DNA from: Phycisphaerae bacterium RAS1
Lineage (GTDB): Bacteria > Planctomycetota > Phycisphaerae > UBA1845 > Fen-1342
Assembly (NCBI GenBank): GCA_007859745.1
Contig: SMLU01000001.1
Location: 2,542,001-2,606,000, forward strand
DNA: 64,000 bases
Direction of reading: 5' to 3'
Shown here piece by piece: positions 40,461-61,713 of the stretch (position 1 is the first letter of the stretch; the number at the start of each line of letters is the position of its first letter). The notes under the pieces are model-generated. The model was not told the DNA's origin, made no database searches, and saw only the letters and a list, made by a program, of their open reading frames with translations. A program made the translations under genes and the position numbers.

Positions 40461-41364
40461 AGTCGTCGCACGCCTGCGCGGCCTGGAGCTGCGCAGCCGC
40501 CGGGCCGTCACCGGCGTGCTGTCGGGCATGCACCGCAGCGTGTACCACGGCTACAGCGTGGAGTTTGCCGAGCACCGCCCCTACGTCGCCGGCGACGACC
40601 TGCGGCACATCGACTGGCGGCTCTTCGGCCGCAAGGACCGCTTCTTCATCAAGCAGTACGAAGAAGAGACCAACCTGCGCTGCAATTTCCTGCTCGATAC
40701 GTCGAGCTCGATGGCCTTCGGCGGCGGCGGGGTGAGCAAGTTCGAGTACGCGGCGGCCCTGGCGGCGTCGATGGCGTATCTGGTCAGCGAGCAGCACGAC
40801 GCGATCGGACTCATCACATTCGACAGCCGGGTGCGTACGAATCTTCCCGAGACGACCGGGCATCAGCAGCTCCTCAACTTTCTGGCCCTGCTGGATGACG
40901 CCGCGCCCGAGGGGCAGACGGACGTCAAGATGCTCTTTCACCGGCTGGCCGAGCAGCTCCGGCGGCGCTCGGTGGTGGTGCTGATCTCCGATCTGCTGGC
41001 CGACATCGACGCGGTGGCGGACGGGCTGGAGCACTTGTGCCACACCGGCCACGAGCTGATCGTCTTTCACACGCTCGATCCCAGCGAGTGGGATTTCCCG
41101 TTCGTTGAGAACGTGATGTTTGAAGGGCTGGAAGACGAGCTGCGGCTTTTGGCCGATCCGCAGGCGCTGCGAGCCAGCTACATGGCCGCGGTCGAGCGCT
41201 TCTGCACGCGCGTCAAGACGGTCTGTCTCAAGCACCGCGCCGACTACGTCGCGGTCAACACGCGCGATCCGGTGGAGGTCGTGCTCTCCGGCTATCTCAG
41301 CCGCCGCGCGGGGGCTGCGGCCCCGCCGGCGCGCGGCACTGCGGGCGGAGGCGGCCGGTCGTGA
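40429..41364 (+). CDS. DUF58 / VWA-like protein, MoxR partner
   Basis: The start is placed at the ATG at 40429 ([20 protein letters not shown]), inside the end of the MoxR gene; 311 residues. The DUF58 signature is [20 protein letters not shown], followed by a VWA fold with a metal site of DxSxS type ([10 protein letters not shown]) and [16 protein letters not shown]. The protein is cytosolic, without membrane helices. Proteins of this kind sit next to MoxR in many bacteria and link it to membrane VWA proteins. The last codons overlap the GTG start of the BatA-like gene. Confidence 0.93.
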
Positions 41365-43718
41365 GCGGGGCGATCCTGGCGCTGGGCGTCATCAACGCCG
41401 GCCTGCTGGCGGGGCTGGGTCTGGCGCTCGTCCCGGTCATCATTCACTTCCTCTCGCGCCGCCGTTATCGCCGCATGCCCTGGGCGGCGACGGTTTTTCT
41501 GCTCGAAGCGGAGAAAGAGAACCGTCGGCGGGTGCGCTTTGAGCAGTGGCTGCTCCTGGCGCTGCGCTGCCTGGCGATGGCGCTCCTGGCGTTGCTGGTG
41601 GCCCGGCCGTTCGCGCGCGCCGGGATCGTCGGTTCGCTGCTCGGCAGCGGGGCTGCGGCCCAGCGGATCATCGTCCTCGACGACTCCGCCAGCAGCGGTT
41701 ACCGCGCCACCACCCGCAGCGATCTGGAACGCATCTGCGAGGCGGCCACACGCCTGCTGGCCTGGCTGCGCGAAGAATCGCCCCAGGACGCCGTGAGCGT
41801 GTGGCTCACGTCGCGCGACGCGGAGCCGCTCGTTTCTCGCACGCCGCTGGAATCGATCAGCGTCGAGTCGGTTCGCGCGAAGCTGGGCGAGCTCCGCCCG
41901 GCGGCGCTGCGCGCCCGGCCGGCCCGCGTCCTGAAATCCATCTTCGCCCGGACGGCGCTGGGCAGCGTGGCGGAGATGTACCTGCTTTCCGATTTTCAGC
42001 GCAGCGACTGGCTCGAGGGTCCGGACGCCGCGTCGGTCGCGCTGGATTCATTGCGCGGCGCGGCGGGCAAGGATGCTCCGTCGATCGTGCTGGCGCCCGT
42101 CGGCGAGGCGGTGCGTCCGAATCTCGCGATCCTCGAAATCGCTCCGACTCGGCCGCAGACGATCGCCGGGCTGCCGGCGCTGATCGAGGCGGTCGTCGCG
42201 AACCTGACGACGCGGCCGCTCAAGGACGCCGCGCTGGCCGTCGCGCTGGATCGCGCCGCTGTGCCGGCGGCGCCGATCGAGCCGATTGAACCCGGCGGTC
42301 GCGGCCGCGTGCTGCTTGAAGTGACATTTCCGGATGAGGGGTTTCATGAGCTGTCCGTCTCGCTGACGGCCAATGACACGCTGTCGGTGGATGACCTGCG
42401 CCGCGCGAGCTTCTGGGTGCGCCCGGCGATCTCGGTGCTGCTCATCAATGGCCAGCCGGCCGCCGACCCGGCCACGGACGAAGTCGCGCTCCTGCGCTAC
42501 GCGCTGGCGCCGCCCGGACCCTTCTCGTCGGGTGTCAACGTCGAAGTCATCACGGCGGACGAGCTGGAGACATCCGACCTGGGCCGTTTCGAAGCGGTGC
42601 TGGCGTGCAACATCGCCGCGCCGACCGAGGGCGCCGCGGCGGCGCTGGTGCGCTACGTGCAGGCCGGCGGCGGGGTGGTCTTTTTTCTGGGTGAAAACAC
42701 GGGCGATCCGGATGGGTTCAACCGGGCGCTGTTCGACGAAGGCCGCGGCGTGCTGCCGGCGCCGCTCGTGTCGCGCGCGGCGGTGGGAGGCGACGGAGTC
42801 GGGCTGGTGCGGGTCGGCGCGCATCCGATCACCGCGATGTTCCCTGCCGGCGCCGAGTCAATCTCCGAGTACGTCCATTTTCGCGAGTTCTATCGCTGCG
42901 CCGAGCCGGGCGGCGCGGATGCCGGAAAGGCCGGCGCCGACGGACGCGAGGCGCCGCGCGATTCCACTGGAGCGGCGGCCGCGCCGGCTTCGGCGCCGGC
43001 CTCCAGCGCGGCGAGCGTCGTGGCGCGCTACCTGGATGCCGAGAACTCCGCCGCCTGGGTGGAGCGCGTCATCGGCCGCGGCCGCGCGATGCTGTTCACG
43101 TCGACGATCGACCAGGATTGGAACGACTGGGCCCGCGCGCCGGACGGCAGCTACGTGGTCACGCTGCTGGAGCTGGTGCAGCATGTCGCCCGCCGCAGTC
43201 CGCACGCAATGTCCTATGACGCCGGCGAGGCGCTGGAGCTGGCCGTGTCGCCGGAAGCGTACGATCCGACCGCGGTCTTCAAATCGCCTGCATTTCCTGA
43301 GGTGCCCTCGACGCCGGCGCGCGTGCGTGAATCGGAGTTGCTGCCCGGACAACTGATGACGCTCGTCGGCCCGCCGGCCGATGCGATCGGCGCCTGGCAG
43401 ATCGAGCTGCGGACGCGCGACGGACGCGAGGAAGTCCGGCCGTTGTGCGTGAATCTCGATCCGCGTGAATCCGACCTGACCCCGGCTTCCAGCGCTGAAC
43501 TGGAAGCGCTCTTTCGCGGGCTGCCGCTGCGCATCGCCTCCGTCGACCAGTTCCTGACCGGGCGCGAGCGCGGCCGCTACGAAATCTGGCCCACCGTCCT
43601 GCTCGTGCTGGTCGGCGTGCTCCTGATGGAGCAGACGCTGGCCTGGTGGTTCGGCCGCGCGCCCGCGGGCGGTCTGCCGGCGGGACCCTCGCGCTTCGCG
43701 CGCCGGGGGCGGCGGTGA
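41361..43718 (+). CDS. BatA-like membrane protein with VWA-type domain
   Basis: The GTG start overlaps the previous stop (GTGA). The 785-residue protein begins with the BatA N-terminal region: a membrane helix (LALVPVIIHFLSRRRYRRMP), WAATVFLLEAEKENRRRVRF and a second helix. A VWA-like metal site (IIVLDDSASSGYRA) follows, then a large beta-rich periplasmic part, and a final membrane helix (IWPTVLLVLVGVLLMEQTLAW). Related proteins form membrane complexes with MoxR partners. The C-terminal membrane anchor makes most of the chain extracytoplasmic. The stop shares a base with the next start (TGATG). Confidence 0.87.
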   Translation: MSGAILALGVINAGLLAGLGLALVPVIIHFLSRRRYRRMPWAATVFLLEAEKENRRRVRFEQWLLLALRCLAMALLALLVARPFARAGIVGSLLGSGAAAQRIIVLDDSASSGYRATTRSDLERICEAATRLLAWLREESPQDAVSVWLTSRDAEPLVSRTPLESISVESVRAKLGELRPAALRARPARVLKSIFARTALGSVAEMYLLSDFQRSDWLEGPDAASVALDSLRGAAGKDAPSIVLAPVGEAVRPNLAILEIAPTRPQTIAGLPALIEAVVANLTTRPLKDAALAVALDRAAVPAAPIEPIEPGGRGRVLLEVTFPDEGFHELSVSLTANDTLSVDDLRRASFWVRPAISVLLINGQPAADPATDEVALLRYALAPPGPFSSGVNVEVITADELETSDLGRFEAVLACNIAAPTEGAAAALVRYVQAGGGVVFFLGENTGDPDGFNRALFDEGRGVLPAPLVSRAAVGGDGVGLVRVGAHPITAMFPAGAESISEYVHFREFYRCAEPGGADAGKAGADGREAPRDSTGAAAAPASAPASSAASVVARYLDAENSAAWVERVIGRGRAMLFTSTIDQDWNDWARAPDGSYVVTLLELVQHVARRSPHAMSYDAGEALELAVSPEAYDPTAVFKSPAFPEVPSTPARVRESELLPGQLMTLVGPPADAIGAWQIELRTRDGREEVRPLCVNLDPRESDLTPASSAELEALFRGLPLRIASVDQFLTGRERGRYEIWPTVLLVLVGVLLMEQTLAWWFGRAPAGGLPAGPSRFARRGRR

Positions 43719-46102
43719 TGATCCTGGCTCAGAACGACGAGAGCGTTCGCCGCGCGTTCGAATGGGATAACGCGCCCGAGGGCTGGCCGGCTCTGCTGGC
43801 GCTCTTGGCTCTGCTGGCGATCGGCTACGCCGTGATCTGGCTGTATCGCCGAGAGGGGCGCGAGGGCGCCGGGCCGGCGCTGCGGCTGGTGCTGGCGGGG
43901 CTGCGCTGCGCGGTGGTGGGCGCCCTGGCAGTGATCTGGCTGGACCCGGTGATCGCGACGTACAACGTCCGCACGATTCACGCCCGGGTCGCGGTCGTCA
44001 CCGACGTATCCACAAGCATGAGCGTGTCCGACCCTCTCCAGAGCGCCGCCGGCGGCACGCGGTTGGAGCGCGTGGAGGAGCTGTACTCGGCGGGCAATCA
44101 TGCCTGGCTGCGGCGCCTGGCTGAAAACAACCAGCTTGCGCTGTACGCCTTCGGGGAAGAAACCGCGGCGCTGGCGGCGCCGTGGGAATCGGGCGCCGGC
44201 GGGCTGGCCGCGGCGCCGGTCGGACGCGGCCGCAGCGACGCGGCCCTGGCCGTCGCACACGCCTTCGAGGACCGCAGCGAGCAGCCCATGGCGGCGGTCA
44301 TCCTGGTGTCCGACGGCCAGTTCAACAAAGGCGCCGCGGCCGAGGACATCGCCGCCCACGCGCGGCGCTTCAAGAGTCCCATTTACGCCATCGGCGTCGG
44401 CGCCGCCGTCGAGCCGCCGAACCTGCGCGTGGTTGAGATCGCCGCCCCGCCGACGGCGCCGACCGGCGACCCTTTCCAGATCCGCGTGCAGGCGGCCGCG
44501 AGCGGCATCGACAGCGCCAGCGCCGAAATTGAGCTGACGGTCCAGGCGGCGCAAGAGGCCGCCGCTGCCGGCGAGCCGCCGGCCGTCGTTGCGCGGCGCA
44601 GCGTGACGCTCACGCCCGACGCGCCGCAGACGGTGGATTTCGAGGTGACGCCCGGCCCCCCGGGTTCCTACGTGTATCGCGTCCGGATCGAGCCGCTGGC
44701 GGACGAGCCGGTGCTGCTCGACAACGCGCGCGACGCGGGCGTCGAGGTGCTCGACCAGCGGCTGCGCGTGCTGCTGGTGACCGGCGGACCCTCGTATGAG
44801 TATCGCTACCTGACGCGGATGCTCGAGCGCGACCGCAGCGTGGATGTGAGCTGCTGGCTGCAATCGGCCGACGTGCAGGCGGTGCGCGACGGCGACGTCG
44901 TGATCCGCGAGTTGCCGCGCCGGCCCGAAGAGGTGTTCGGATATGACGCGATCATTCTGCTCGACCCGAACCCGGAGGAATTCGACCAGGCCCTGGCGCT
45001 GACGTTGCGGCGGTTCGTGGATGAGTTCGGTGGCGGGCTGCTCGTGCAGGCCGGCCCGCATCATTCGGCGCGATTCATGCGCGACGCGCGCCTGGCCGAC
45101 CTGGTTGCGATCCTGCCCATCACGCCGGACCCCGAAGCCGACGTGCGGTTGACCGAGCAGGGGACGTTTCGCACGCGCGCCGTGGCGATCGAACCCGCCG
45201 AGCAGAATCGGACGCACCCGCTCGTGTCGCTGGCCTCCGACGCGGCCGGCAATCGCGAGGTGTGGCGCGCCCTGCCGGGCGTCTCCTGGCACCTGCCTGT
45301 GCTCAAGCCCAAGCCGATCGCCACGGTCCTGCTGGAGACTCCCGGCGGCGGCGGCGAGCCGGAGTGCCTGATGGCCGTTCAACCGGTGGGCGCCGGACGA
45401 ACCGCGTTTCTGGGCTTCAATACGACGTGGCGCTGGCGCGGCACGGCGGAGCGCTGTTTCAATCAGTTCTGGGTGCAGGTTGTGCGTTACCTGTCGCAGG
45501 CGCGGCGCGAGGCCGTCAGCAAGCGCGGCACGATTTCGCTGGACCGGGCCACGATTTTCGTGGGCGACTACGTGACGGTCGAGGCGCGCGTGCTCGATCC
45601 GCAGTACAACCCGTGGCACGAACCGCAGGTGGAGGCGACCCTCAAGTCCGGCGACGCCGCCGAGCGGGCGACGCTGCTCTCAGCCATTCCCGGGCGCGAG
45701 GGCTGGTTTGCCGGCCGCGTGCTCTTTGACCACGAGGGATCGACGCTCATTCGCGTGAAGCTGCCGGGAGGCGAGGGCCGGCCGGAAAACTCCGCAGACG
45801 AAAGGCCGGAGGCCGGTCCCGCGGCGCTGACGAAACGCGTCCTGGTGCAGCAGCCGGACTACGAACTGCGCGCGCTGCGGATGCGCGAGGATGTATTGCG
45901 CGAACTGGCGCTTCAGACCGGCGGAGAGTTCTTCACGCTTGACGACGCCGGCGGTCTGCCGAGTCTCATTAAGAAAGCGTCGCAGACGCTGCGGACGCCC
46001 GGTCCGAAGCTGGCTCAGTGGGATCGCGGCTGGGTGCTGGCGGTGCTGGCCGGGCTGCTGGCCGTGGAGTGGTGGGTGAGACGGAGGAACCATCTGTTGT
46101 GA
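43718..46102 (+). CDS. Large membrane-anchored VWA protein
   Basis: The ATG at 43718 gives 794 residues. Two membrane helices near the N terminus (WPALLALLALLAIGYAVIWL and RLVLAGLRCAVVGALAVIWL) are followed by a VWA domain with DxSxS metal site (VVTDVSTSMSVSD) and ILVSDGQFNKGAA. Next comes a region resembling the glutamine-amidotransferase-like fold often fused to such VWA proteins (RVLLVTGGPSYEYRYLTRML). A single helix and basic tail end the chain. It is the third VWA-type protein in a row. Stop and next start overlap (GTGA at 46099-46102). Confidence 0.87.
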   Translation: MILAQNDESVRRAFEWDNAPEGWPALLALLALLAIGYAVIWLYRREGREGAGPALRLVLAGLRCAVVGALAVIWLDPVIATYNVRTIHARVAVVTDVSTSMSVSDPLQSAAGGTRLERVEELYSAGNHAWLRRLAENNQLALYAFGEETAALAAPWESGAGGLAAAPVGRGRSDAALAVAHAFEDRSEQPMAAVILVSDGQFNKGAAAEDIAAHARRFKSPIYAIGVGAAVEPPNLRVVEIAAPPTAPTGDPFQIRVQAAASGIDSASAEIELTVQAAQEAAAAGEPPAVVARRSVTLTPDAPQTVDFEVTPGPPGSYVYRVRIEPLADEPVLLDNARDAGVEVLDQRLRVLLVTGGPSYEYRYLTRMLERDRSVDVSCWLQSADVQAVRDGDVVIRELPRRPEEVFGYDAIILLDPNPEEFDQALALTLRRFVDEFGGGLLVQAGPHHSARFMRDARLADLVAILPITPDPEADVRLTEQGTFRTRAVAIEPAEQNRTHPLVSLASDAAGNREVWRALPGVSWHLPVLKPKPIATVLLETPGGGGEPECLMAVQPVGAGRTAFLGFNTTWRWRGTAERCFNQFWVQVVRYLSQARREAVSKRGTISLDRATIFVGDYVTVEARVLDPQYNPWHEPQVEATLKSGDAAERATLLSAIPGREGWFAGRVLFDHEGSTLIRVKLPGGEGRPENSADERPEAGPAALTKRVLVQQPDYELRALRMREDVLRELALQTGGEFFTLDDAGGLPSLIKKASQTLRTPGPKLAQWDRGWVLAVLAGLLAVEWWVRRRNHLL

Positions 46103-48282
46103 GCACGCGCCCGCTGGACGAGCTGGATCTCCTGATCGCGCAGCGCGTCTACGCGCCGCTGGATCGCCTGCGCACGCGCTGCAGGCTCTATCTGGCGCTT
46201 CGCGGCGCCGTGCGGCTGGGGCTGACGGTCGGCGGCGCGTGCCTGGTACAGTTGCTGCTCGACTACTTCCTGCGGTTCTCAATCGACCAGCGCGGCGCGC
46301 TGAATGCCGCGATTACCGTGCTTTGGAGCTACGTCTTCTACCGAACGATCGCCATGCCGTTGCTGCGGCCGCTGGCCGACGCCGACCTGGCGGCCTGGGT
46401 GGACCGAGTGAATCCGGCGCTGCACAACCACCTGGCGACGGCCGTGCAACTGGCCGCGCGTCGGCGGGCCGGCCGCGTCTCGATTGACGCTGAATCGCCG
46501 CAACTGATCGAGTTGGTGTTGAAACAGGCCTGCGAGCTGGCCGACCGGCACCCCTTCACCGATGCACTCGATCACGGCCGCGCCCGGCGCCGGGCGATCG
46601 ACCTCGCCGTGCTTGCGGCGCTGTCCGCCGCGGCGCCGCTGCTCATGCCGGATGCCATCGGCACGTGGTTCTCGCGAAACTGGTTGCTCCAGGACCGCGC
46701 CTGGCCGCAGCGGACGCGCATTACGCCTGACGGCTTCGACGAGGCCGGCCGACGCCGCCTGCCGCGCGGCGAGGAACTCGAGATTATCGCCGACGTCCAA
46801 GGCGATATGCCCGCGTCGGCGACGCTGTACTGGCAGACTGCGAGCGGCCGCGGCGGGCGCGAGACCATGAACCTGCTGGGCGACACGCGGCTGCTGGCCG
46901 CGCTGGGGCCGCTGGCCGAGGACGTGCGTTTTTCGATCCGCGGCGGCGACGAGCGGACGCGCGAGTACATAGTCGAGGCGGTCGATCGACCGACGGTCAC
47001 CAATTCCGTGGCGCGCATCATTCCGCCGGCCTACACCCGGCTCGATGTGGTCGAGCTGGAGCATGAGACCGTGATTGAGATATTGAAAGGCGGAGCGCTC
47101 GAAATCGACGCGCGGGTCAACAAGCCGCTGCAATCGGCGCGCCTGGTCGGACTGAGCCAGCCGGCCGAGGGCGCGGAGGTGCAGCTCGACGCCGACCCGC
47201 GCGGCCAGCCGATGGTGAAGCTGCGCTGGGACGCTCCGCTATCGGGCGCCTACCGCTTCGATCTGCTCGACCAGGACGGTCTTTCCAACCGCAACCCCGT
47301 CCGCTACACGCTCAAAATCGTCGCGGATCAGCCGCCGGCCGTGAAGCTGGAGCTGCGCGGCGTGGGTGAGATCATCACGCCGCAGGCGGTTTTTCCGGCG
47401 GTGAGCGAATCCCGCGACGTCTACGGATTGAGCGGCGCGAAGTTGCTCATTCAGCGTGCGGACGCGGCGCCGCTGCACGTGCCGGCGCCCGGCTTCGAAG
47501 CCGGGATGCGCGAATTGCAGTCCGAAGTGGCGGTGGACGCCGCCGCGCTGGGCGTAAAGCCGGCCGAGCGGTTGCGGATCTGGGCGGAAGCGACCGATTT
47601 TGACCCGGCCGGACCAAACATCGGGCGCTCGCCGGCGCTCGAGCTGCGCGTCGTCAGCCGCGATGAATTCGGCGTTGAAATGGCGCGACGGGAGATCGAA
47701 CTTCGCCGGGAGATGGAGACGCTGGCCAGCGGCCAGCGTAGCGTGCGCGAGACCGTGGTGCGGCTGCTGGGCGACCTGGGCGATGGGCAGGTCCCCGGGT
47801 CGGCTGAATCGCAGCGGCTCTTGGGCCTGATTCGCCGACAGGCGACGCACGCGGGCCGGATCCGGTCGATCGCGCAACGCTTCGAGCAGATTCTGGCTGA
47901 GATGCAGACCAGCCGAACCGCCCGTCCGGCTGACGAGCGGCGTATGGTGGATCGCCTCGCCCGGCCGCTGCGGGCCATTGCCGACACGGACCTGCCGGCG
48001 GCGTCGGACGCCCTGGCGGCGCTGCGCATGCAGACGGATGCCCAGACCCGAAAGTCGGCGTTGCAGCAGCAGGAGCAGGTGCTGGCCCGGCTCAGCGCGG
48101 TGCTGGCCAACATGCTGGAGTGGGAAGGCTTTCAGGAAGCCGTATCGTTGCTGGAAGACCTGATCACCGAGCAGTCGGATGTTCACTCGGCGACGCTGGA
48201 GGCCATGCGGCGGCGGCTGCGCAACATCCTGGAACTGGATGATTCTGAAGAAGTTGCGCCGGCCACGCAACCGAAACCATAG
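46099..48282 (+). CDS. Membrane protein with long coiled-coil tail (DUF4175-like position in the operon)
   Basis: The GTG start at 46099 overlaps the previous stop; 727 residues. The N-terminal 190 residues carry three membrane helices (VRLGLTVGGACLVQLLLDYF, then NAAITVLWSYVFYRTIAM, then IDLAVLAALSAAAPLLMP). A beta-rich middle follows, and a helical C-terminal part of about 200 residues rich in R, E, Q and L (RREIELRREMETLASGQRSV) is likely a coiled coil. The layout resembles DUF4175-type proteins found in comparable clusters, but I would not insist on the family name. A gap of 42 bases precedes the next gene, the first non-overlap in the block. Confidence 0.75.
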   Translation: MSTRPLDELDLLIAQRVYAPLDRLRTRCRLYLALRGAVRLGLTVGGACLVQLLLDYFLRFSIDQRGALNAAITVLWSYVFYRTIAMPLLRPLADADLAAWVDRVNPALHNHLATAVQLAARRRAGRVSIDAESPQLIELVLKQACELADRHPFTDALDHGRARRRAIDLAVLAALSAAAPLLMPDAIGTWFSRNWLLQDRAWPQRTRITPDGFDEAGRRRLPRGEELEIIADVQGDMPASATLYWQTASGRGGRETMNLLGDTRLLAALGPLAEDVRFSIRGGDERTREYIVEAVDRPTVTNSVARIIPPAYTRLDVVELEHETVIEILKGGALEIDARVNKPLQSARLVGLSQPAEGAEVQLDADPRGQPMVKLRWDAPLSGAYRFDLLDQDGLSNRNPVRYTLKIVADQPPAVKLELRGVGEIITPQAVFPAVSESRDVYGLSGAKLLIQRADAAPLHVPAPGFEAGMRELQSEVAVDAAALGVKPAERLRIWAEATDFDPAGPNIGRSPALELRVVSRDEFGVEMARREIELRREMETLASGQRSVRETVVRLLGDLGDGQVPGSAESQRLLGLIRRQATHAGRIRSIAQRFEQILAEMQTSRTARPADERRMVDRLARPLRAIADTDLPAASDALAALRMQTDAQTRKSALQQQEQVLARLSAVLANMLEWEGFQEAVSLLEDLITEQSDVHSATLEAMRRRLRNILELDDSEEVAPATQPKP

Positions 48283-48324
48283 AATATCCGTGTGGCGCGG
48301 CCGCCGCGCCGAAGGTCGTGAAGC

Positions 48325-50100
48325 ATGCGGACGATGGTCGCATATCTCGTCGCGTTTGCCGCCTGCGCGAGTGCGGGACTGGCTCAATCTGCGCCCGCCG
48401 TCGATTCGCCCGCCGGCGACGCCGAACTTCCGGCGCGACAGCAGGTGGTGCGTGCGCGGCTGGAGCGGTTGGAGGGTCGCATCGTTCAGCTAGCCCGGCT
48501 GCTCAATGAGTCGGAGCCGGAAAAGGCCGAGCGTCTGCGCGACGCGCTCAAACGCGTCGGTGAGCAGCAGGTTGACCGCCGGATCGAGAAGCTAAGCGAG
48601 CTCCTGCAGTCGATGCAGCTTGGCGAGGCCGCCGGAAAGCAGAAGGAGCTGTTGACCGATCTGGCAGGAATCCTGACCGACCTGACCGATGCGCTGAGCG
48701 ACGTCGAGCACAAGCGCAAAGAGCGCGAGCGGATCGAGTCGTTCAAGCGGTCGGTTGAGGCGGCGCTGAAACGGCAGCTCGACGCCCTCTACCAGACGCA
48801 CCAGGCCTCTCTCCAGCGAAAACTCGCGGACGAGCTCCGCGCCGCAGCCGAAAAACTGGCCGAGCTGGCCGATCGGCAGGCGGAACTTCGCGAGAAGCCG
48901 TCGGAGTCGGCTCCGCAGCGCGCCCGGCTGCAGCAGGAGTTGGAGAACGCGGCCCGTGCGCAGGCCGCGGACCTCCAGGCCAAGACTGTCGACTCCCCCG
49001 AGGCGGCGCGTGAGCCGCTGGCCGAGTCCGCCGAAGACGTGGCCGAAGCGGCGCGGGCCATGGACGCGGCGCAGGACAATCTGCGTGGCGGCAACGCGCC
49101 TGCCGCCCGTGAGAGGCAGCAGGCCGCCGAAGAGCGGCTGCGGCGGGCGGTGCAGCGCCTGCGCGAGCAGGCGCAGGCGGCGGACGCGCGCGAGTCACTG
49201 CGGCAGGTGGAGCGTTTGCAGCGCGAGGCGGAGCAGGCGGCGGCCGAACTGGCCCAGCAGATGCTCCCTCAGAAGGGCGGAAAGCCGGCGGCGCCCGGGC
49301 GGCAATCGGTCGAGAACGCCCGGGAGCAGATGCAGAAGGCCGCCGACCGGCTTGGCGAGGACCAGCCCGAACCGGCCGAGAGCGCCGAACGCGAGGCGCT
49401 GGAGCAGCTTGAGAAAGCGCGCGACGAGTTGAGCGACGCGTTGCGGCAGGTGCGCCAGGATGAAGTGGAGGAGATGTTGACGGCGCTGGAGCAGCGCTTC
49501 CGGCGGCTGCTCGCGGAACAAGAGCAGCTTCGCACGGACGTGATCCTGCTCAGCGAAAAGAAGAAAGGCACGTGGACGCGGGACGATGATCAGGACCTGG
49601 CCAAGGCGGCTGCGGCGCAGCAGGCGCTCACGGAAGAGTGCCGCGGCGTGCAGCGCGTGCTGTCCGACGACGGCACAACCGTGGTCTTGCCGGAGCTGGT
49701 CGGGCGGTTGACGCGGGAGATGGCCGAGGTGTCCAGACGCCTGGGGGCGGGCCAGACCGGCGCGGACGTGATCCCCCGCATGGACGACATCCTCGCGTCG
49801 CTGCGCGAGATCCTCGATTCCATCGAGGCCCAGAAATCGGAGATCGAGCAGGATCGCGGCCGCAACGGCGGTGGCCCGTCGGGCGGCCGCGACGGCCCGC
49901 GCCCGCTGATTCCCGGCTCGGCAGAACTGAAGCTGCTCAGAAATCAACAGCAACGGATCAACAAGCGAACCAGCGATCTCGCGCAGCGCAACGCGGATTC
50001 GGCGGCGCCGGCCGCCGCGCATCAAGCAGAACTCGACGACCTGGCCCGCTGGCAGTCGCAGCTCGTGCAGCTCGCAAGGACGATGAATGAACGCCAGTAG
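48325..50100 (+). CDS. Exported, almost entirely coiled-coil protein
   Basis: The 591-residue protein has a signal peptide (VAYLVAFAACASAGLAQS). After about residue 35 nearly the whole chain is Ala/Glu/Gln/Arg-rich heptad sequence (for example VERLQREAEQAAAELAQQML and LEQLEKARDELSDALRQVRQ), with one Gly-rich break near residue 520. There is no membrane helix after the signal. It is likely a long rod in the periplasm, perhaps a spacer between the membrane VWA proteins and the proteases of this block. The next gene starts inside its last codons (14-base overlap). Confidence 0.78.
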   Translation: MRTMVAYLVAFAACASAGLAQSAPAVDSPAGDAELPARQQVVRARLERLEGRIVQLARLLNESEPEKAERLRDALKRVGEQQVDRRIEKLSELLQSMQLGEAAGKQKELLTDLAGILTDLTDALSDVEHKRKERERIESFKRSVEAALKRQLDALYQTHQASLQRKLADELRAAAEKLAELADRQAELREKPSESAPQRARLQQELENAARAQAADLQAKTVDSPEAAREPLAESAEDVAEAARAMDAAQDNLRGGNAPAARERQQAAEERLRRAVQRLREQAQAADARESLRQVERLQREAEQAAAELAQQMLPQKGGKPAAPGRQSVENAREQMQKAADRLGEDQPEPAESAEREALEQLEKARDELSDALRQVRQDEVEEMLTALEQRFRRLLAEQEQLRTDVILLSEKKKGTWTRDDDQDLAKAAAAQQALTEECRGVQRVLSDDGTTVVLPELVGRLTREMAEVSRRLGAGQTGADVIPRMDDILASLREILDSIEAQKSEIEQDRGRNGGGPSGGRDGPRPLIPGSAELKLLRNQQQRINKRTSDLAQRNADSAAPAAAHQAELDDLARWQSQLVQLARTMNERQ

Positions 50101-51163
50101 CCGCTTGCCTGCGATAATGTGCAAGGCGCGAAGCGGCGCCGCGGCGCCGTCGCCGCTTCGAACCTGCGTGATCGCCGCGGTGTGTCTCGCCGGAATCCGA
50201 ACCGGGATTGCGGATGCGGATGACCGGATCGAGCGGCTCAACGCCTCGTTTGTTCAGCACGTCGCCGGATTGGGCGCGGAGCACGCCGTCGCGGCTGCGG
50301 TGATTCGCCGCGAGGCTGAGGGGGGCGCGGCGAGCGACGCGGATTTCGTGCCGCAGGGGCTGGCGCTTCTGTTTCCGCGTTTTCGCGAGGCACTGGAGGC
50401 GTTCGACGCGGGGAATCTCGCGCAGGCGCAGGCCGGCTTTGAAGACGCGACGCGCCAGAGCGATCCCTACCTCTCTGCGGTCGCCGCCTACTTCGCCGCG
50501 CGTACGCATGTGCATTCCGGCCGGTTCGAAGAAGTGTTGCCGCTGCTCGAAGACCTGACTTCACGGCCCGACCTCGGCGAGCGCCTGTCGTTTGCGCCGC
50601 ACAGTTTGCACCTGCTCGCGGCGGCGCAGTCGGCCACGCTGCGCTTCGACCAGGCGCTGGCGACGCTCGAGCATCTGCGCGCCGACTACCCCGACGCGCC
50701 CGAGCTGGTGCGCGTCGCCGCCAGAGAATTGCAGCTCGAAGTCGAACGACGCGAGCGCGGCAATCTCGACGAAGTGTCCGTCTACATGGACTACTCCGCC
50801 TCAAGACTGAAAGCCGCCGACAGCGGCGAGCGCGTCCAGGAGCGCCAGCAGCAGGTCATCGACATGCTCGACAACCTGATTGAGCAGGCCCAGCAGCAGG
50901 AAAGCCAGCAGCGCCAACAACAGCAGTCGTCGCCCGGCCACACGCCCGGCAACCAGCCGGCGGAGCAATCCACCGCTCCGCCGTCGGGCAGCGCGGATCC
51001 CGGCGAGCAGCACAAGGCCGCCAAGGCGGACCCCGGGCAAATGTGGGGCAGGCTGCCGCCCGCCGAGCGCGAGCGCGTCCTGCAGTCGCTGCGGGCGCGC
51101 TTCCCGTCACGCTACCGGCAGATTGTCGAGCAGTATTATCGTTCCACCGCGGAGCAGAAGTGA
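50087..51163 (+). CDS. Exported TPR-like protein with conserved WGxLP...FPxRYR tail
   Basis: The 358-residue protein has a hydrophobic segment at about residues 25-42 that may be a signal peptide. Helical repeats resembling TPRs follow (FREALEAFDAGNLAQAQAGF, then DQALATLEHLRADYP), then a Gln-rich helix (QQQVIDMLDNLIEQAQQQE) and a Pro/Ser linker. The C terminus MWGRLPPAERERVLQSLRAR then FPSRYRQIVEQYYRS is a motif that recurs in TPR (BatC-like) members of MoxR/VWA clusters. It probably acts as an adaptor. The stop overlaps the GTG start of the next gene. Confidence 0.75.
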   Translation: MNASSRLPAIMCKARSGAAAPSPLRTCVIAAVCLAGIRTGIADADDRIERLNASFVQHVAGLGAEHAVAAAVIRREAEGGAASDADFVPQGLALLFPRFREALEAFDAGNLAQAQAGFEDATRQSDPYLSAVAAYFAARTHVHSGRFEEVLPLLEDLTSRPDLGERLSFAPHSLHLLAAAQSATLRFDQALATLEHLRADYPDAPELVRVAARELQLEVERRERGNLDEVSVYMDYSASRLKAADSGERVQERQQQVIDMLDNLIEQAQQQESQQRQQQQSSPGHTPGNQPAEQSTAPPSGSADPGEQHKAAKADPGQMWGRLPPAERERVLQSLRARFPSRYRQIVEQYYRSTAEQK

Positions 51164-52413
51164 TCCCGATCCAGCCTCCGGGCCTTGCGCGTTGCGTTCG
51201 AACCGGCGCCTGCGGGGCGTTTGCGCTCGGGCTTCTCGCAGCGGCCATCGCCCGCGGCGGCTGGCCGACCGTCCAACTCACGCTTCTCGACGGGCGTCAA
51301 GTTGCAGGCACACTCTCGGCCGTGGCGCCACGGCTGGAGCTTGGCACCTCCAGTGGCGACATTTCGTTCGCGTGGGAACAGGTTCTGGCGCTTCAAAACC
51401 AGCAGCCGGACTCGTCCGCCGCGGTCGGGTCCGACGACGGGCTGGTGTTTGAGCTGTCCGACGGCTCCGTCTTTCGCGGCAGGATCATCAGCACGACCGA
51501 CAACGGCGTCGTCGTCGAGTTCGGCCGCGGGGCGACCTGTCGCCTTGATCCGACCATGTGCCGCGCGGTTCGCAACGACCGGGCGGCCGACGCGGCCCGT
51601 GCCAAGCTGGCCGACCTGCTGCGCGAGCGCCGCGAGCCGCAACCGGCCGAGGAGGCGCCTTCACCCGCGGAGGATGTGGCGGTCGTCGCCCGCAGGAGCG
51701 ACGTGTTGGTGCTTCACGGCGGCGTGCGACGACTCGAGCAGGACGGGATCCGTTTCACGTGGGAGGGTCAGGAAGTTCACCTGCCCTGGGGACGCGTGGC
51801 GGGGCTGCTGCTGGGGCGACCGTCGCCGCGCAGCGGGGCTTCGCTCGTCACGTTGCGCACGGCGGACCGCTTCGCCGGGCGTCCCGTCGGCGGCGACGAA
51901 GACGGCCTGACGCTCCAATCACCGATTTTCGAGCGCCTGACGCTGGCGTGGGCGGATATCGAGCGCATCGAATGCCGCAGCGAGCGGCTGGTGTACCTGT
52001 CCGATCTGGCGCCGCGGCGCTACGACTTTGAGCCGCTCTTCGGCAAGGTCTGGCCGATCGGCGTCGATCGCTCGCTTTTCGGCGGACCGCTGTCGCTCGG
52101 CGGCAAGCCCCATTTGAAGGGAATAGCACTGCACAGCCGCTGCGAAGTCGCGTATCTCCTGGGCGGAAAATTCGATCAGTTCGCGGCGACGGTCGGCATC
52201 TGCGACGACGCCGGCCGACGCGGGGCGGCGCGGCTCATTTTCGTCGGCGACGGTCGCGTGCTATGGGAAGGCGACGTCGGCGGCGGTCAGCCCCCGCGGG
52301 AGATCACGGTGGACCTGCTGGACGTGCGCGAGCTGATGATTCGCGTTGACTACGGCGCTGATCTGGACCTGGCCGATCACGTGTGCATGGCACAGGCGCG
52401 GCTGATTCGATGA
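51160..52413 (+). CDS. Exported protein with C-terminal NPCBM carbohydrate-binding domain
   Basis: The GTG start at 51160 overlaps the previous stop; 417 residues. An N-terminal hydrophobic stretch (GACGAFALGLLAAAIARGG) should direct export. Two or three short beta modules of similar type follow (VQLTLLDGRQVAGTLSAVAP, then DGSVFRGRIISTTDNGVVVE). From about residue 310 comes an NPCBM/NEW2-type domain (LKGIALHSRCEVAYLLGGKF, then FAATVGICDDAGRRGAARLI). NPCBM domains bind glycans and usually accompany glycosidases; here the neighbours are proteases. The ATGA overlap links it to the first HtrA-like gene. Confidence 0.8.
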   Translation: MIPIQPPGLARCVRTGACGAFALGLLAAAIARGGWPTVQLTLLDGRQVAGTLSAVAPRLELGTSSGDISFAWEQVLALQNQQPDSSAAVGSDDGLVFELSDGSVFRGRIISTTDNGVVVEFGRGATCRLDPTMCRAVRNDRAADAARAKLADLLRERREPQPAEEAPSPAEDVAVVARRSDVLVLHGGVRRLEQDGIRFTWEGQEVHLPWGRVAGLLLGRPSPRSGASLVTLRTADRFAGRPVGGDEDGLTLQSPIFERLTLAWADIERIECRSERLVYLSDLAPRRYDFEPLFGKVWPIGVDRSLFGGPLSLGGKPHLKGIALHSRCEVAYLLGGKFDQFAATVGICDDAGRRGAARLIFVGDGRVLWEGDVGGGQPPREITVDLLDVRELMIRVDYGADLDLADHVCMAQARLIR

Positions 52414-53999
52414 TGGTGCGGCTACCAGTCCTGGGCACGATCGCCGGCCGGCTTGCAGTGATGCTGGCGACGCCGCTCCTGCCATCAATGGCCGCGGCCG
52501 ACGACGTTCCGCTTTCCGATATCCGCGCCGCCGAGCAGCGGCGCGTCGACGTGCTGCAAACCGCCTCGCGATCCGTCGTCTGCATCTTCGCGGATAAGAG
52601 TCGTCGCGGCGGCGGCAGCGGCGTCATCATCGACCCCGCCGGTTTCGGCCTGACGAATTTCCACGTCGTTTCCGAGATGCTCGAAACCCGCCGCGGCTTC
52701 GGCGGGTTGGACGACGGGAACCTCTATCCGCTGCGCGTGCTGGGCGTCGACCCCGGCGGCGACGTGGCGATGTTCAAGCTCGACGGACGCGAGCGCTTCG
52801 ACGCCGCGCCGCTCGCGGACGCCGATGCGCTCGTGCTGGGCCAGTGGGTGGCCGCTATTGGCAATCCGTTTCTGCTGGCCGAGGACTACTCGCCGACGAT
52901 CACGCTGGGCATCGTCAGCGGCCTGCATCGCTACCAGGAGGGGGAAAACAACCTGCTGGAATACGCCGACTGCATTCAGGTGTCGACCTCGATCAACCCG
53001 GGCAACTCGGGCGGGCCGCTGTTCGACATGCAGGGTCGCGTGGTCGGGATCAACGGCCGCGGGTCGTTCGAGGAGCGCGGCCGCGTCAACGTCGGCCTGG
53101 GCTACGCCATCACGATCAACCAGATTCGCCGCTTTATTCCGGGATTGCGGGCCGGGCTGCTCGTCGAGCACGGGACGCTGGGCGCGACCGTGCGGCGGGC
53201 CGGCAGCGAGCTGATCTTTGACGCGGTGCAGCAACTTTCACCCGCGGACAAGGCCGGGGTCGAGCTGGGCGACCTGCTGCTGGCGGTGAACGACCGCCCG
53301 ATGCGCACCGCGAACGACTTCAATAACGCGATCGCGGTGCTGCCGGCGAATTGGCCGGTTCGGCTGAAGGTGCGGCGCGAGCAGCGCGAGATCGAGGTGG
53401 CGGCGCGGCTGGAGCGCCTGCCGGCATCGCTGGGCGCACCATTTGTGCCTGATCGGAGTCTGGCGCTCGCGGAAATTCGGCGGTACATGCCGCCGTGCAA
53501 GGGGTTCGAACCGAACGCGGAGATCGAAATCGAAATCGAGACGGCGAACGAGCTTGCGCGATCCTCGCAGACCGTCGTGCTGCCGCCGCCCAGCGCAACG
53601 CAGCCGGCGGCGCTGACGGCTGAATCGGAGTACCTGGTGGAATGGCAGGCGGTGATCGGGCCGCTCGTCCGGGCGACCCCGCTGGACACCGCGTGGAATC
53701 TCATTGGCGCCGATGAGTTGGAGGGGTTCGTCGTCGTCGTGATCGAGCAGACCACGCCGAGCGGCCGGGCAGTTCGCTGGCATTTCGAGGCGGACAGCGG
53801 CCGCCTGCGGAGCGTAACCGTCGGCGGCGCCGTCATTCCCGGCGAGCGAACCTGGTCGACGGCCCATGACGCGCCGGATGCAGCTGCCTGCCTCCCGTCG
53901 AACTGGGTCCGCGAAGGCGACGGCTCGACGCGGAGCGTAAGCATCAAGCGAATCGGCCCGCGTCAGGCGGCGTCGCAACCGGCGGAGGTCGATCGATGA
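52410..53999 (+). CDS. HtrA/DegP-like serine protease with PDZ domain (catalytic triad intact)
   Basis: The ATG at 52410 overlaps the previous stop; 529 residues with a signal peptide (LAVMLATPLLPSMAAA). The trypsin-like domain has H85 (LTNFHVVSEM), D118 (DPGGDVAMFKL) and S200 (INPGNSGGPLFD), a complete triad. A PDZ-like domain follows (LSPADKAGVELGDLLLAVND, about 275-345). A further beta-rich C-terminal region of about 170 residues matches no domain I recognise. The likely role is periplasmic protein quality control. It is coupled by a 4-base overlap to a paralogue that has lost the triad. Confidence 0.92.
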   Translation: MMVRLPVLGTIAGRLAVMLATPLLPSMAAADDVPLSDIRAAEQRRVDVLQTASRSVVCIFADKSRRGGGSGVIIDPAGFGLTNFHVVSEMLETRRGFGGLDDGNLYPLRVLGVDPGGDVAMFKLDGRERFDAAPLADADALVLGQWVAAIGNPFLLAEDYSPTITLGIVSGLHRYQEGENNLLEYADCIQVSTSINPGNSGGPLFDMQGRVVGINGRGSFEERGRVNVGLGYAITINQIRRFIPGLRAGLLVEHGTLGATVRRAGSELIFDAVQQLSPADKAGVELGDLLLAVNDRPMRTANDFNNAIAVLPANWPVRLKVRREQREIEVAARLERLPASLGAPFVPDRSLALAEIRRYMPPCKGFEPNAEIEIEIETANELARSSQTVVLPPPSATQPAALTAESEYLVEWQAVIGPLVRATPLDTAWNLIGADELEGFVVVVIEQTTPSGRAVRWHFEADSGRLRSVTVGGAVIPGERTWSTAHDAPDAAACLPSNWVREGDGSTRSVSIKRIGPRQAASQPAEVDR

Positions 54000-54988
54000 T
54001 CGCGCTGGCGGTGATGCTCTTGCTGGGCGCGGCGGCGGCGTGCGCGGATCAACCCGCTTCCCCGTTTGCCGGCGCCATCGACGCCGCGCAAGCTCGCGTC
54101 GTCAAACTCTACGGTGGCGCGATCGGCCGCGAACAGGGCTACGGCTCGGGCGTGCTGGTTTCGGCGGACGGGAAGATCGTGACGGCGCTTTCATCGCTGC
54201 TCGAAGGCCGCAGCATCCGGGCGGTGCTGGCTGACGGCCGAGTGCTGACGGCCCGCGTCACGGCCCGCGACGAGCATCGCCAGCTCGCCATTCTCCAGGT
54301 GGAATCGGCGAACCTGCCCTATTTTGAGCTGGGATCGAGCGAGCATCTCGAGCCGGGGGATTGGGTCCTGAGCGCCGCGAACGCCTTCAAGGTGGCTGAC
54401 GGGCCGGAAGCTGTGTCGGTCTCGGTCGGCGTCCTGGCGGGGCGGGCACGGCTCGAGGCGCGGCGCCGCGCACAGGATTTCCCATACGACGGCCTGGTTC
54501 TGCTGACGGATGTCATAATCGCCACGCCCGGCAGCGCGGGCGGCGCGCTGGTGGACGCCGAGGGCCGGCTTGTCGGCGTGATCGGCAAGTCCGTCACCAG
54601 CAAGCTCACGAACACGTTCGCGAATTTCGCCATTCCGGTGGAAGAGGTCGCGGCCTTCGTCGCGCAGCCGGACGCGAAGCCGCAGGACGGAAGTGCGTCG
54701 CCTTCTCAGGCCGAATTTTCTGCGCTTCGGCTCGGACTGCGGCTCTTCAACGTCGGCTCGCGCCGCCCGCCGCCGTTCATCGAACGCGTGCGCCCCGGCT
54801 CGCCGGCCCAGGCTGCCGGCCTGCGCGCCGGCGACCTGGTGTTGTCTGTGAATGGCCGGACGACGGAGGCGTGCGCGGATGTTGAGGAGCTTTTGCGAAC
54901 CGCCCTGGCGGACAAACCGCTGACCATCGTCGTGAAGCGCGGCGAAAGCGTCCTGCCATTCGAATTGAAGCCGGCGGAGCGCCCGTAA
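53996..54988 (+). CDS. HtrA-like pseudoprotease with PDZ domain (triad lost), first copy
   Basis: The 330-residue protein keeps the HtrA fold: signal peptide, GYGSGVLVSADGKIVT, LPYFELGSSEHLEPGDWVLS, and a C-terminal PDZ (VRPGSPAQAAGLRAGDLVLS). At the catalytic places it has S66 (VTALSSLL where TNxHVV is expected), Q96 (RDEHRQLAIL where D is expected) and A181 (TPGSAGGALV where NPGNSGGPL is expected). All three triad residues are therefore replaced. It should bind but not cut substrates. It overlaps the active protease gene by four bases, which suggests a shared complex. The two genes on its sides encode an active and another inactive relative. Confidence 0.9.
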   Translation: MIALAVMLLLGAAAACADQPASPFAGAIDAAQARVVKLYGGAIGREQGYGSGVLVSADGKIVTALSSLLEGRSIRAVLADGRVLTARVTARDEHRQLAILQVESANLPYFELGSSEHLEPGDWVLSAANAFKVADGPEAVSVSVGVLAGRARLEARRRAQDFPYDGLVLLTDVIIATPGSAGGALVDAEGRLVGVIGKSVTSKLTNTFANFAIPVEEVAAFVAQPDAKPQDGSASPSQAEFSALRLGLRLFNVGSRRPPPFIERVRPGSPAQAAGLRAGDLVLSVNGRTTEACADVEELLRTALADKPLTIVVKRGESVLPFELKPAERP

Positions 54989-55009
54989 CGCCGGCGCTTC
55001 ATCGTTGAC

Positions 55010-55014
55010 GGAGG
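55010..55014 (+). promoter_or_regulatory. GGAGG ribosome-binding site for a TTG start
   Basis: GGAGG lies six bases before the TTG at 55021 and supports this rare start for the third HtrA-like gene; the signal peptide begins right after it. Confidence 0.75.
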
Positions 55015-55020
55015 ACCCGG

Positions 55021-56151
55021 TTGACACGATTCACACGCCGCCTGCCCGCCTTGATCGCGGCGGCGCTTCTGAGCGCGCTGCCGGCGGGCGCCCGCGCAGC
55101 GGCCGACGAAGCACTCGCCTTCCGCCACGCGCTGCAGTCGATGGCGCCGTCGATCGTCCGCATCGACACCGTCGGCGGCGCGCTGCCGGTCGCGTCCGAC
55201 GGCGGCGACCACGCGCCATCCGCCCCGGCGTTTCGCGTCGGCGACGGCCCCACCACGGGCGTGATCTGGTCGGAAGACGGCCTGATCATCACCAGCAGTT
55301 TCAATTTTCAGCGCGACCCGGCCGTGATTACGGTCACGCTCGCCGACGGGCGCCGCTACGTCGCCAAGCTGCTGGCGCGCGACAGCGTGGCGCGGCTCGC
55401 CCTTCTCCGCATCGACGCGAGCAACCTGGCGCCCGCCCGCCGCCGTGCGATCGCCGACGTCCGCCCGGCGCAGTGGATTCTCACCGCAGGCTTCGGCTAC
55501 GGCAGTTCGCAGCCGGCGATCTCCGTGGGCGTGGTCAGCGCTCTCAACCGGCTGAGCGGTCTGGCGGTTCAGCTCGACGCCAAGACTTCGCCCGCCAATT
55601 ACGGCGGGCCGGCGTTTGATATCGACGGTCAGTTGATCGGCATCTGCGTCCCGTCGGCGGGTCGCGACGAGGCCCAGAGCGCCGGAGTCGAGTGGTACGA
55701 CTCGGGCATCGGCTTCGCGGTCACCAACGATTACATCGAACAGCGCATCCCGCGGCTGGCGGGGGGCGCGGACATTCGCCGCGGCATGCTGGGCATCTCG
55801 TTTGAGGCGGATGATCCGGTCGTCGGCCAGGCGGCGGCGAGCGGTCCGGCGCGGCTTGCCGCCGGTTTGAAAATGGTCAGCATCGAGGGCGCCGCGGCAC
55901 AGGCGGCCGGTCTTCAGGAGGGCGACGTGCTGACCCATCTGGACGGCCAGCCCATCGCCCGCCTGCTGCAGTTGCGGCGAACCCTCGCGCGGAAGGCCGC
56001 CGGCGACGAAGTAACGCTGACGTTTCTTCGCGACGAAAGTTCACAGTCCGTCCGCGTTCGGCTGATGACGCCCGAAGAACTTCAGCCGCCGGAATCGCAG
56101 CCCGCCACCGCCGCCGCGTCGCAGCCCGCCGATGCCGACGGTCGTCCCTGA
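55021..56151 (+). CDS. HtrA-like pseudoprotease with PDZ domain (triad lost), second copy
   Basis: The TTG start at 55021 follows GGAGG at the right distance; 376 residues with a signal peptide (LIAAALLSALPAGARAA). The trypsin-like fold is recognisable (GVIWSEDGLIITSSF, then AISVGVVSALNRLSG, then GIGFAVTNDYIEQRIPRL), followed by a PDZ (IEGAAAQAAGLQEGDVLTHL). The triad is replaced by F94 (TSSFNF for TNxHV), R125 (DSVARLALL for DxxxDLALL) and Y194 (SPANYGGPAF for NPGNSGGPL). The replacements differ from those in the first pseudoprotease, so the two were inactivated separately or diverged long ago. It ends in a Gln/Pro/Ala tail and is the last gene of the block. Confidence 0.9.
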   Translation: MTRFTRRLPALIAAALLSALPAGARAAADEALAFRHALQSMAPSIVRIDTVGGALPVASDGGDHAPSAPAFRVGDGPTTGVIWSEDGLIITSSFNFQRDPAVITVTLADGRRYVAKLLARDSVARLALLRIDASNLAPARRRAIADVRPAQWILTAGFGYGSSQPAISVGVVSALNRLSGLAVQLDAKTSPANYGGPAFDIDGQLIGICVPSAGRDEAQSAGVEWYDSGIGFAVTNDYIEQRIPRLAGGADIRRGMLGISFEADDPVVGQAAASGPARLAAGLKMVSIEGAAAQAAGLQEGDVLTHLDGQPIARLLQLRRTLARKAAGDEVTLTFLRDESSQSVRVRLMTPEELQPPESQPATAAASQPADADGRP

Positions 56152-56208: not shown

Positions 56209-56306
56209 CCGAACCCGCCGCGCCAAAGCGGCGGGTCGACGATCGCTGGCGATCGGCGCCCCACAGGCCGCGGACGTCACCCCGCCGCTTGGCGCGGCGG
56301 GTTCGG
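56209..56306. repeat. Paired palindromic repeat (CCGAACCCGCCGCGCC family)
   Basis: A left arm and an inverted right arm of about 25 bases enclose about 45 bases that also match, in reverse orientation, the unit at 61474-61570 (shared GTGACGTCCGCGG and GGCGCCGATCGC). The following ACGGATCGCCACC is shared with that unit's flank too. It lies after the end of the HtrA block and may serve as transcription end or RNA-stability element. Confidence 0.85.
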
Positions 56307-56397
56307 ACGGATCGCCACCTGAGACCGGACGCACCCATTGCACGCGGCCGCTCGCGCAAGCAAGGCCACGCCCGATCCCGCCCGGTATACTTCCTGC

Positions 56398-61359: not shown

Positions 61360-61393
61360 TTCGTGATTGCCCTTTCCCGGTCCATCCGGTTAC

Positions 61394-61478
61394 AGGTGGC
61401 GATCCGTCCGGTTTCAGTTGGCGATCCGTCCGGTTTCGGGTGGCGATCCGTCCGGTTTCGGGTGGCGATCCGTCCGAA
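61394..61478. repeat. Four tandem copies of a 22-bp unit
   Basis: GGTGGCGATCCGTCCGGTTT (plus two bases) repeats with exact 22-bp spacing (GATCC at 61401, 61423, 61445, 61467). The last copy runs directly into the palindromic repeat at 61474. The same GGTGGCGATCCGTCC flank adjoins the related palindrome at 56209-56306, in inverse orientation. Confidence 0.88.
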
Positions 61479-61570: not shown

Positions 61571-61713
61571 ACAGACGCCGCGGATCGCAACCTCTATCGG
61601 GATGCGCCCGCCCGTGCCGCCGAGGCCGGCAGCCAATTGTAATCAGCGCGGCGGGGAAGGCGCGTCGCGTTCGATCAGAAATGCCCCCCGAGCGCGGGCC
61701 GGGAACTACGCCG

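What the first reader, a model, noticed from the sequence alone, without database searches (positions are those of the whole stretch)
52410..56151. One active HtrA-like protease followed by two independently inactivated pseudoproteases
The first gene has H85, D118 and S200. The second has S66, Q96 and A181 at the same places, the third F94, R125 and Y194. Signal peptides, strand patterns and PDZ domains are retained in all three, and the first two genes overlap by four bases. Keeping two dead copies next to a live one suggests that they regulate it, deliver substrates to it, or build a mixed oligomer. I know of no named system with this trio.
Basis: partly seen in the sequence, partly recalled or inferred. 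Interest (0 to 1): 0.78.

Follow-up and report, generated by a model that had tools for sequence, protein, structure and literature searches.

The report
Ancient protease with two dead partners
Across the bacterial phylum Planctomycetota, one secreted quality-control protease (HtrA/Deg type) is kept together with two sister proteins that have the same shape but destroyed active sites, which suggests that the dead copies are working partners of the live enzyme and not wreckage.

Summary
Gene 1 (52410-53999, "P1") has an intact His85-Asp118-Ser200 triad. P2 (53996-54988) has Ser66/Gln96/Ala181 and P3 (55021-56151) has Phe94/Arg125/Tyr194 at the same positions. Both keep the HtrA fold (protease plus PDZ). 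The trio forms the 3' end of an 11-gene operon (MoxR-DUF58-BatA-VWA-membrane-coiled coil-TPR-NPCBM-P1-P2-P3) that is collinear across Planctomycetota. In 143-146 distinct sequences of each member, P1 never loses a triad residue; P2 and P3 never have a usable triad; P3 always has Tyr or Phe (137/6) in place of the nucleophile and never the oxyanion-hole glycine. P1, P2 and P3 each form one clade and co-occur almost perfectly, even in complete genomes where the genes lie far apart. P1 and P2 are fused into one polypeptide in 16 genomes; P2 and P3 in one. Most likely P2 and P3 are obligate non-catalytic partners or regulators of P1, as MamO is for MamE; a mixed HtrA oligomer is the leading form. 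No direct evidence of contact or activity exists. "Independently inactivated" is not shown: P2 and P3 may be sister clades. I found no published description of this trio. Verdict: real, new variant of a known kind.

The parts
52410..53999 (+). P1: HtrA/Deg-type serine protease with intact triad H85/D118/S200, Trypsin_2 + one PDZ, plus a ~190-aa C-terminal extension without a Pfam match; hydrophobic N-terminus
   Evidence: Pfam/NCBIfam, PDB HMMER alignment; H 117/117, D 132/132, S 143/143 in orthologues that cover the position
53996..54988 (+). P2: HtrA-like pseudoprotease, S66/Q96/A181 at the triad positions, Trypsin_2 + PDZ; ATGA overlap with P1
   Evidence: no orthologue of 146 has two or more canonical triad residues
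55021..56151 (+). P3: HtrA-like pseudoprotease, F94/R125/Y194 at the triad positions, oxyanion-hole glycine replaced (A192), Trypsin_2 + PDZ; TTG start
   Evidence: Tyr 137 / Phe 6 of 143 at the nucleophile position and Gly 0/143 two residues before it
51043..52413 (+). NPCBM/NEW2-domain protein immediately upstream; its stop codon overlaps the P1 start (ATGA)
   Evidence: Pfam PF08305, E 1e-23; collinear in relatives
50087..51163 (+). TPR protein of the operon
   Evidence: Pfam TPR_19, collinear in relatives
48325..50100 (+). coiled-coil-rich protein, weak DUF4175 similarity
   Evidence: (DUF4175 E 1.8e-4, below cut-off)
46018..48282 (+). membrane protein of the operon (ORF extent; no Pfam match)
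43646..46102 (+). VWA-containing protein (weak VWA match)
41361..43718 (+). BatA-type protein (BatA N-terminal double-TM domain)
   Evidence: PF07584 and TIGR02226 over cut-off
40288..41364 (+). DUF58/VWA protein (longest ORF; the true start is probably downstream, near the end of MoxR)
   Evidence: PF01882, E 1.6e-47
39300..40460 (+). MoxR-type AAA+ ATPase, first gene of the operon
   Evidence: PF07726 match at G000:C1:2581519-2581923, inside this ORF; collinear in relatives

Best explanation
P1 is the only catalytic subunit of an exported HtrA/Deg system. P2 and P3 are dedicated non-catalytic partners that arose by duplication and lost catalysis before the sampled planctomycete lineages diverged, and have since been kept to control P1. 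The most likely form is a mixed HtrA oligomer or an allosteric-partner complex, in which P2 and P3 supply PDZ domains and loops that recognise signals or substrates and set P1's activity, while their own active sites cannot cleave. In P2 the nucleophile and the general base are gone. In P3 bulky residues (nearly always aromatic) replace both His and Ser, and the oxyanion glycine is gone. Together they serve envelope quality control or regulated proteolysis linked to the MoxR/BatA/VWA machinery encoded upstream. Shown: P2 and P3 lack the triad, the HtrA fold is kept (predicted), the residues replacing the triad are conserved in kind, and the three genes co-occur, share an operon and fuse. Inferred: export to the periplasm, physical contact, direction of control (activation or restraint), and the link to the MoxR/Bat proteins' function.
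For: Triads: P1 H/D/S invariant, P2 and P3 never canonical, P3 Tyr/Phe invariant. Each member is monophyletic across the phylum (SH-aLRT/UFBoot 100/100, 99.9/100, 100/100). P1, P2 and P3 occur in exactly the same 15 of 27 family genomes. In 391 phylum genomes, 86 have both P2 and P3, 2 only P2 and 5 only P3 by threshold, and divergent P2 genes sit beside P3 in 4 of those 5. The whole operon is collinear across families. In single-contig genomes G205 and G494 the three genes lie at three distant loci, yet all are kept. P1::P2 is one ORF in 16 genomes of at least 8 families, and P2::P3 in one. P2 and P3 keep the full protease + PDZ fold. Precedent: the pseudoprotease MamO activates the HtrA protease MamE (PMC4794232).
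Against: No direct evidence of contact, oligomeric state or activity. No complex could be modelled here. In the MamO/MamE precedent no physical interaction was detected (PMC4794232). P2 and P3 diverge faster than P1 (mean pairwise identity 37% and 43% versus 52%), so they are less constrained. About half the family genomes and most phylum genomes sampled lack the trio, so it is not universally required.
Confidence: 0.6

Rival explanations
1. P2 and P3 have been repurposed as independent adaptor, scaffold or ligand/metal-binding proteins of the same pathway. They do not touch or regulate P1 and are kept because they serve the MoxR/BatA envelope machinery.
For: MamO also has a metal-binding role separate from activating MamE (PMC4794232). 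Trio members can be unlinked from each other and from the operon.
Against: Repeated P1::P2 fusion and one P2::P3 fusion, and co-retention with P1 after dispersal.
Confidence: 0.22
2. P2 and P3 are inhibitors or substrate decoys: they bind the same unfolded clients through their protease clefts and PDZ domains without cleaving, so they act as holdases or protect clients from P1.
For: HtrA proteins are known to have chaperone activity apart from cleavage (family knowledge). The fold and PDZ are kept. P2 keeps the oxyanion-hole glycine position in 146/146.
Against: Nothing here distinguishes holdase from regulator. In P3, bulky residues fill both catalytic positions and the oxyanion glycine is lost, which argues against cleft binding of substrate by P3.
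Confidence: 0.13
3. P2 and P3 are decaying duplicates (pseudogenes) or retain catalysis through other residues, for example a Tyr nucleophile in P3.
For: Faster divergence of P2 (37% mean identity).
Against: Open reading frames, fold and triad replacements are conserved across the phylum. P3 also lacks the oxyanion-hole glycine in 143/143, and no tyrosine-nucleophile member of this fold is known to me.
Confidence: 0.04

Closest known systems
MamE/MamO of magnetotactic bacteria (HtrA protease plus HtrA-like pseudoprotease; PMC4794232)
   Same: Active and inactive HtrA-type proteins kept together in one gene cluster. The pseudoprotease has a degenerate triad and, like P3, a non-glycine at the oxyanion-hole position 193. 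The pseudoprotease is needed for proteolysis by its active partner.
   Different: Here there are two pseudoproteases of separate clades, and no magnetosome genes. Neither carries a TauE-type transporter domain in the Pfam scan, and MamE/MamO NCBIfam cut-offs are far from met. The trio spans a phylum and sits in a MoxR/BatA operon.
DegP/DegQ/DegS and other HtrA proteases (MEROPS S1C)
   Same: P1 has the HtrA fold, triad and PDZ; P2 and P3 have the fold and PDZ.
   Different: DegP/Q/S are known as homo-oligomers of active subunits; P2 and P3 lack the triad.
Plant Deg5/Deg8 (PMC3640471)
   Same: HtrA paralogues in one compartment; no protease activity was detected for Deg5.
   Different: Both Deg5 and Deg8 keep complete triads; they are not known to be operon-linked or fused.
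MoxR-DUF58-BatA/VWA ('Bat') operons
   Same: MoxR, DUF58, BatA, VWA and TPR components in the same order upstream.
   Different: The HtrA trio and the NPCBM protein as conserved 3' members are, to my knowledge, not part of the described Bat operons.
MoxR-vWA ternary conflict systems with trypsin-like domains, many inactive (eLife 52696, PMC7159879)
   Same: MoxR + vWA genomic association and catalytically inactive trypsin-like domains.
   Different: Those are hypervariable effector systems with VMAP, STAND, FtsH or beta-propeller parts. Here the operon is stable and the proteases are HtrA+PDZ-type, with no such part recognised.

Membership tests
HtrA/Deg serine proteases (S1C) - P1 | Trypsin-like domain with His-Asp-Ser triad | tested here: met
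HtrA/Deg serine proteases (S1C) - P1 | C-terminal PDZ domain | tested here: met
   PF13180 and PF17820 over cut-off
HtrA/Deg serine proteases (S1C) - P1 | Trimer-based oligomer and proteolytic activity | not testable with these tools
   needs biochemistry
HtrA/Deg serine proteases as active enzymes - P2 and P3 | Complete catalytic triad | tested here: not met
   no member has two or more canonical residues
HtrA-like pseudoproteases - P2 and P3 | HtrA fold (trypsin-like + PDZ) without triad, kept under selection | tested here: met
MamE/MamO | Active and inactive HtrA-type proteins encoded together | tested here: met
MamE/MamO | MamE or MamO family models (NCBIfam NF040960, NF040961) at their cut-offs | tested here: not met
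   at most 100.3 and 43.4 bits against cut-offs of 800
MamE/MamO | TauE-type transporter domain on the pseudoprotease | tested here: not met
   no such Pfam match in P2 or P3
MamE/MamO | Pseudoprotease required for proteolysis by the active partner | not testable with these tools
   needs mutants or purified proteins
MoxR/Bat operon | MoxR, DUF58, BatA-type and VWA genes in order | tested here: met
MoxR-vWA ternary conflict systems | VMAP, iSTAND, FtsH or beta-propeller third component | tested here: inconclusive
   none recognised by Pfam or PADLOC in the proteins scanned; dedicated models were not available

The most novel reading that the evidence does not exclude
P1, P2 and P3 assemble as an obligate 1:1:1 HtrA heterotrimer with a single working active site, the two dead subunits acting as built-in allosteric sensors. 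It would be a prokaryotic HtrA machine whose three subunits are each specialised, conserved across a whole phylum.
Probability: 0.28. Interest if true: 0.85.

Novelty: new variant of a known kind. Interest (0 to 1): 0.72.

Why it matters
HtrA proteases are trimers regulated by talk between neighbouring subunits, but each copy is normally active. A natural system with one live and two specialised dead subunits, old enough to span a phylum, would let each subunit's regulatory role be separated genetically. It also gives a second, deeper instance of the active/inactive HtrA pairing known from magnetosomes. And it attaches a proteolytic arm to the MoxR/BatA operons, whose function is poorly understood.

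Tried and rejected
(1) Misalignment hiding an intact triad: rejected by profile alignments to solved HtrA chains and by phylum-wide columns. (2) Local pseudogenisation: rejected by retention and conserved replacements across the phylum. (3) Retention by hitch-hiking in an operon: rejected, because in G205 and G494 (single-contig genomes) and in G109 the three genes are dispersed and all kept. (4) 'P3 without P2' genomes as counter-examples: in G480, G242, G253 and G303 a divergent P2 lies beside P3; for G231 the contig was too short to tell. (5) Operon without trio in G021: its contig ends before the trio position, uninformative; G013 was judged fragmentary from the search table only. (6) Defence system: the only PADLOC hits were generic trypsin-domain similarity of P1 and P2 to an RT-protease model. 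(7) Correlated P1-P2-P3 divergence (r 0.66-0.84) was not used as evidence, since shared species history gives the same. (8) A mixed-trimer structure prediction was not possible: single chains only, two jobs. (9) Literature searches found no description of the trio; the held library lacks most subscription journals. (10) My first script mis-indexed the P1 histidine by one; corrected.

Full report
What is there. Three adjacent + strand genes encode HtrA/Deg-type proteins: P1 52410-53999, P2 53996-54988, P3 55021-56151. P1's start overlaps the stop of the upstream NPCBM gene and P2's start overlaps P1's stop (ATGA in both cases); P3 follows 32 bases after P2 with its own GGAGG and a TTG start. 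Each has a Trypsin_2 domain and a PDZ domain above Pfam's cut-offs. HMMER alignments to solved DegP/DegQ/HtrA chains put P1's H85/D118/S200 on the catalytic triad, and P2's S66/Q96/A181 and P3's F94/R125/Y194 on the same positions. The genome has 8 Trypsin_2 domains above the cut-off, three of them here.

Fold. AlphaFold2 models of P2 (mean pLDDT 89.7, pTM 0.70) and P3 (87.3, pTM 0.84) were built from alignments of relatives. Both match HtrA chains over nearly the whole protein: P3 to plant Deg1 at Z 27.4, rmsd 4.4, over 291 residues; P2 to Legionella DegQ at Z 27.9, rmsd 12.8, over 278 residues (Foldseek E 1e-25 for P3). The high rmsd of the P2 full-length alignments probably reflects the placement of the PDZ domain, since protease-domain-only rows have rmsd 2-3. 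So the dead proteins keep the fold, as far as prediction can say.

Distribution. P2 orthologues in the family (50-62% identity, clearly separated from other HtrA paralogues, nearly all at about 25-35%) are in 15 of 27 genomes. At E 1e-30 they are in 80 of 114 genomes of the order, and at E 1e-28 in 88 of 391 sampled across the phylum, there mostly at 28-46% identity. P1 and P3 are in exactly the same 15 family genomes as P2. In the phylum sample, 86 genomes have both P2 and P3, 2 only P2 and 5 only P3 by threshold; in four of the five a divergent P2 lies next to P3. A scan of named genomes found 509 relatives of P3; the best 80 come almost entirely from records titled as Planctomycetota lineages, including Thalassoglobus neptunius and Gimesia. 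The exceptions are L148 (titled 'Proteobacteria', a metagenome bin) and L208 ('bacterium'). Whether the trio exists outside the phylum was not settled, because only the best 80 were returned.

Operon. In the window the genes upstream are MoxR, DUF58, BatA-type, VWA, a membrane protein, a coiled-coil protein, TPR and NPCBM. The same order, ending P1-P2-P3, recurs in many families across the phylum. Some genomes have the trio away from the operon (L033, L094, L114), one has MoxR-DUF58 moved next to P1 (L102), and in L216 and L218 the order is P2-P3-P1.

Triads across the phylum. Among 146, 146 and 143 distinct sequences, P1 has His in 117/117, Asp in 132/132 and Ser in 143/143 that cover the position. 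P2 has Ser at the His position in 101, then Gly 22, Asn 12 and others; Ala 78, Pro 33, Gly 17 and others at the nucleophile; no sequence has two or more canonical residues (Ser at the nucleophile occurs in 2, as G/Q/S). P3 has Phe 131/Tyr 7 at the His position and Tyr 137/Phe 6 at the nucleophile; no sequence has two or more canonical residues. The glycine two residues before the nucleophile (chymotrypsin 193, oxyanion hole) is kept in all P1 and P2 that cover it but is never present in P3. A non-glycine at 193 was reported for MamO too (PMC4794232). These replacements are conserved in kind, which is not what decay looks like.

Evolution. On a 99-sequence tree with the triad columns removed, P1, P2 and P3 are each one clade with full or nearly full support; P2+P3 group together with moderate support (76.9/82). 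Hence each pseudoprotease was probably dead before the sampled planctomycetes diverged, and one loss of catalysis before the P2/P3 duplication is as compatible as two. Mean pairwise identity over protease+PDZ is 52% for P1, 37% for P2 and 43% for P3: the dead partners are freer than the enzyme but still constrained.

Functional linkage beyond adjacency. In the single-contig genomes G205 and G494, P1, P2 and P3 lie at three distant places, and in G109 on three contigs, yet all are kept. P1 and P2 are one continuous ORF in 16 distinct genomes (L044/L133, L048/L092, L061/L098, L094, L096, L113, L117, L119, L121, L123, L139, L145, L146, L154, L162, L170); those with family labels fall in eight families. 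Some fusions join P2 directly after P1's PDZ and others after P1's C-terminal extension, so several events are likely. P2 and P3 are fused in L206. Fusion of the live and a dead member is the best indirect evidence that they act together.

Mechanism, with status of each step. Shown: P2 and P3 lack the triad; fold kept (predicted); co-retention; operon; fusions. From family knowledge: HtrA proteins work as trimers in which loops and PDZ domains of neighbouring subunits switch the active site. Inferred: P2 and P3 are non-catalytic partners of P1 in the envelope, probably in a mixed oligomer, and the output is regulated proteolysis or quality control tied to the MoxR/BatA machinery. The direction of control is unknown. 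The nearest studied case is MamO, which activates MamE non-catalytically, without a detected physical interaction (PMC4794232).

Novelty. An active/inactive HtrA pair is known (MamE/MamO). Two separate pseudoprotease lineages, phylum-wide conservation, attachment to a MoxR/BatA operon and repeated P1::P2 fusion are, as far as the held library shows, undescribed. Hence: new variant of a known kind. A library without most subscription journals cannot prove absence.

Noticed in passing
window 39300-52413: Eight-gene MoxR-DUF58-BatA-VWA-membrane-coiled coil-TPR-NPCBM operon, collinear across Planctomycetota upstream of the trio; an NPCBM/NEW2 protein as a fixed member is unusual for Bat-type operons.
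   Followed up: partly
window 53430-53996 (P1 residues ~341-529): P1's C-terminal extension has no Pfam match and is missing in some P1::P2 fusions (L048, L094, L139, L145, L146, L162), where P2 follows the PDZ directly.
   Followed up: partly
L094, L139, L140, L145, L146, L162: The six P3 sequences with Phe instead of Tyr at the nucleophile position; five of the six come from genomes in which P1 and P2 are fused.
   Followed up: no
window 20147-20284, 39148-39185, 56274-56311, 61457-61575, 62086-62136: Dispersed repeat with a GC-rich inverted core (CCCGCCGC..GCGGCGGG), one copy just after the trio; tandem 22-base repeats at 61378-61487 next to one copy.
   Followed up: no
window 27946-28281: A 168-base unit duplicated in tandem at 99% identity, next to a shorter copy of its start (27905).
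   Followed up: no
window 9965-12262 (- strand): A 765-aa ORF that resembles an S46-type peptidase (motifs TNHHVGY and GGNSGSPVFN), the source of the partial Trypsin_2 hit at 10139-10216.
   Followed up: no
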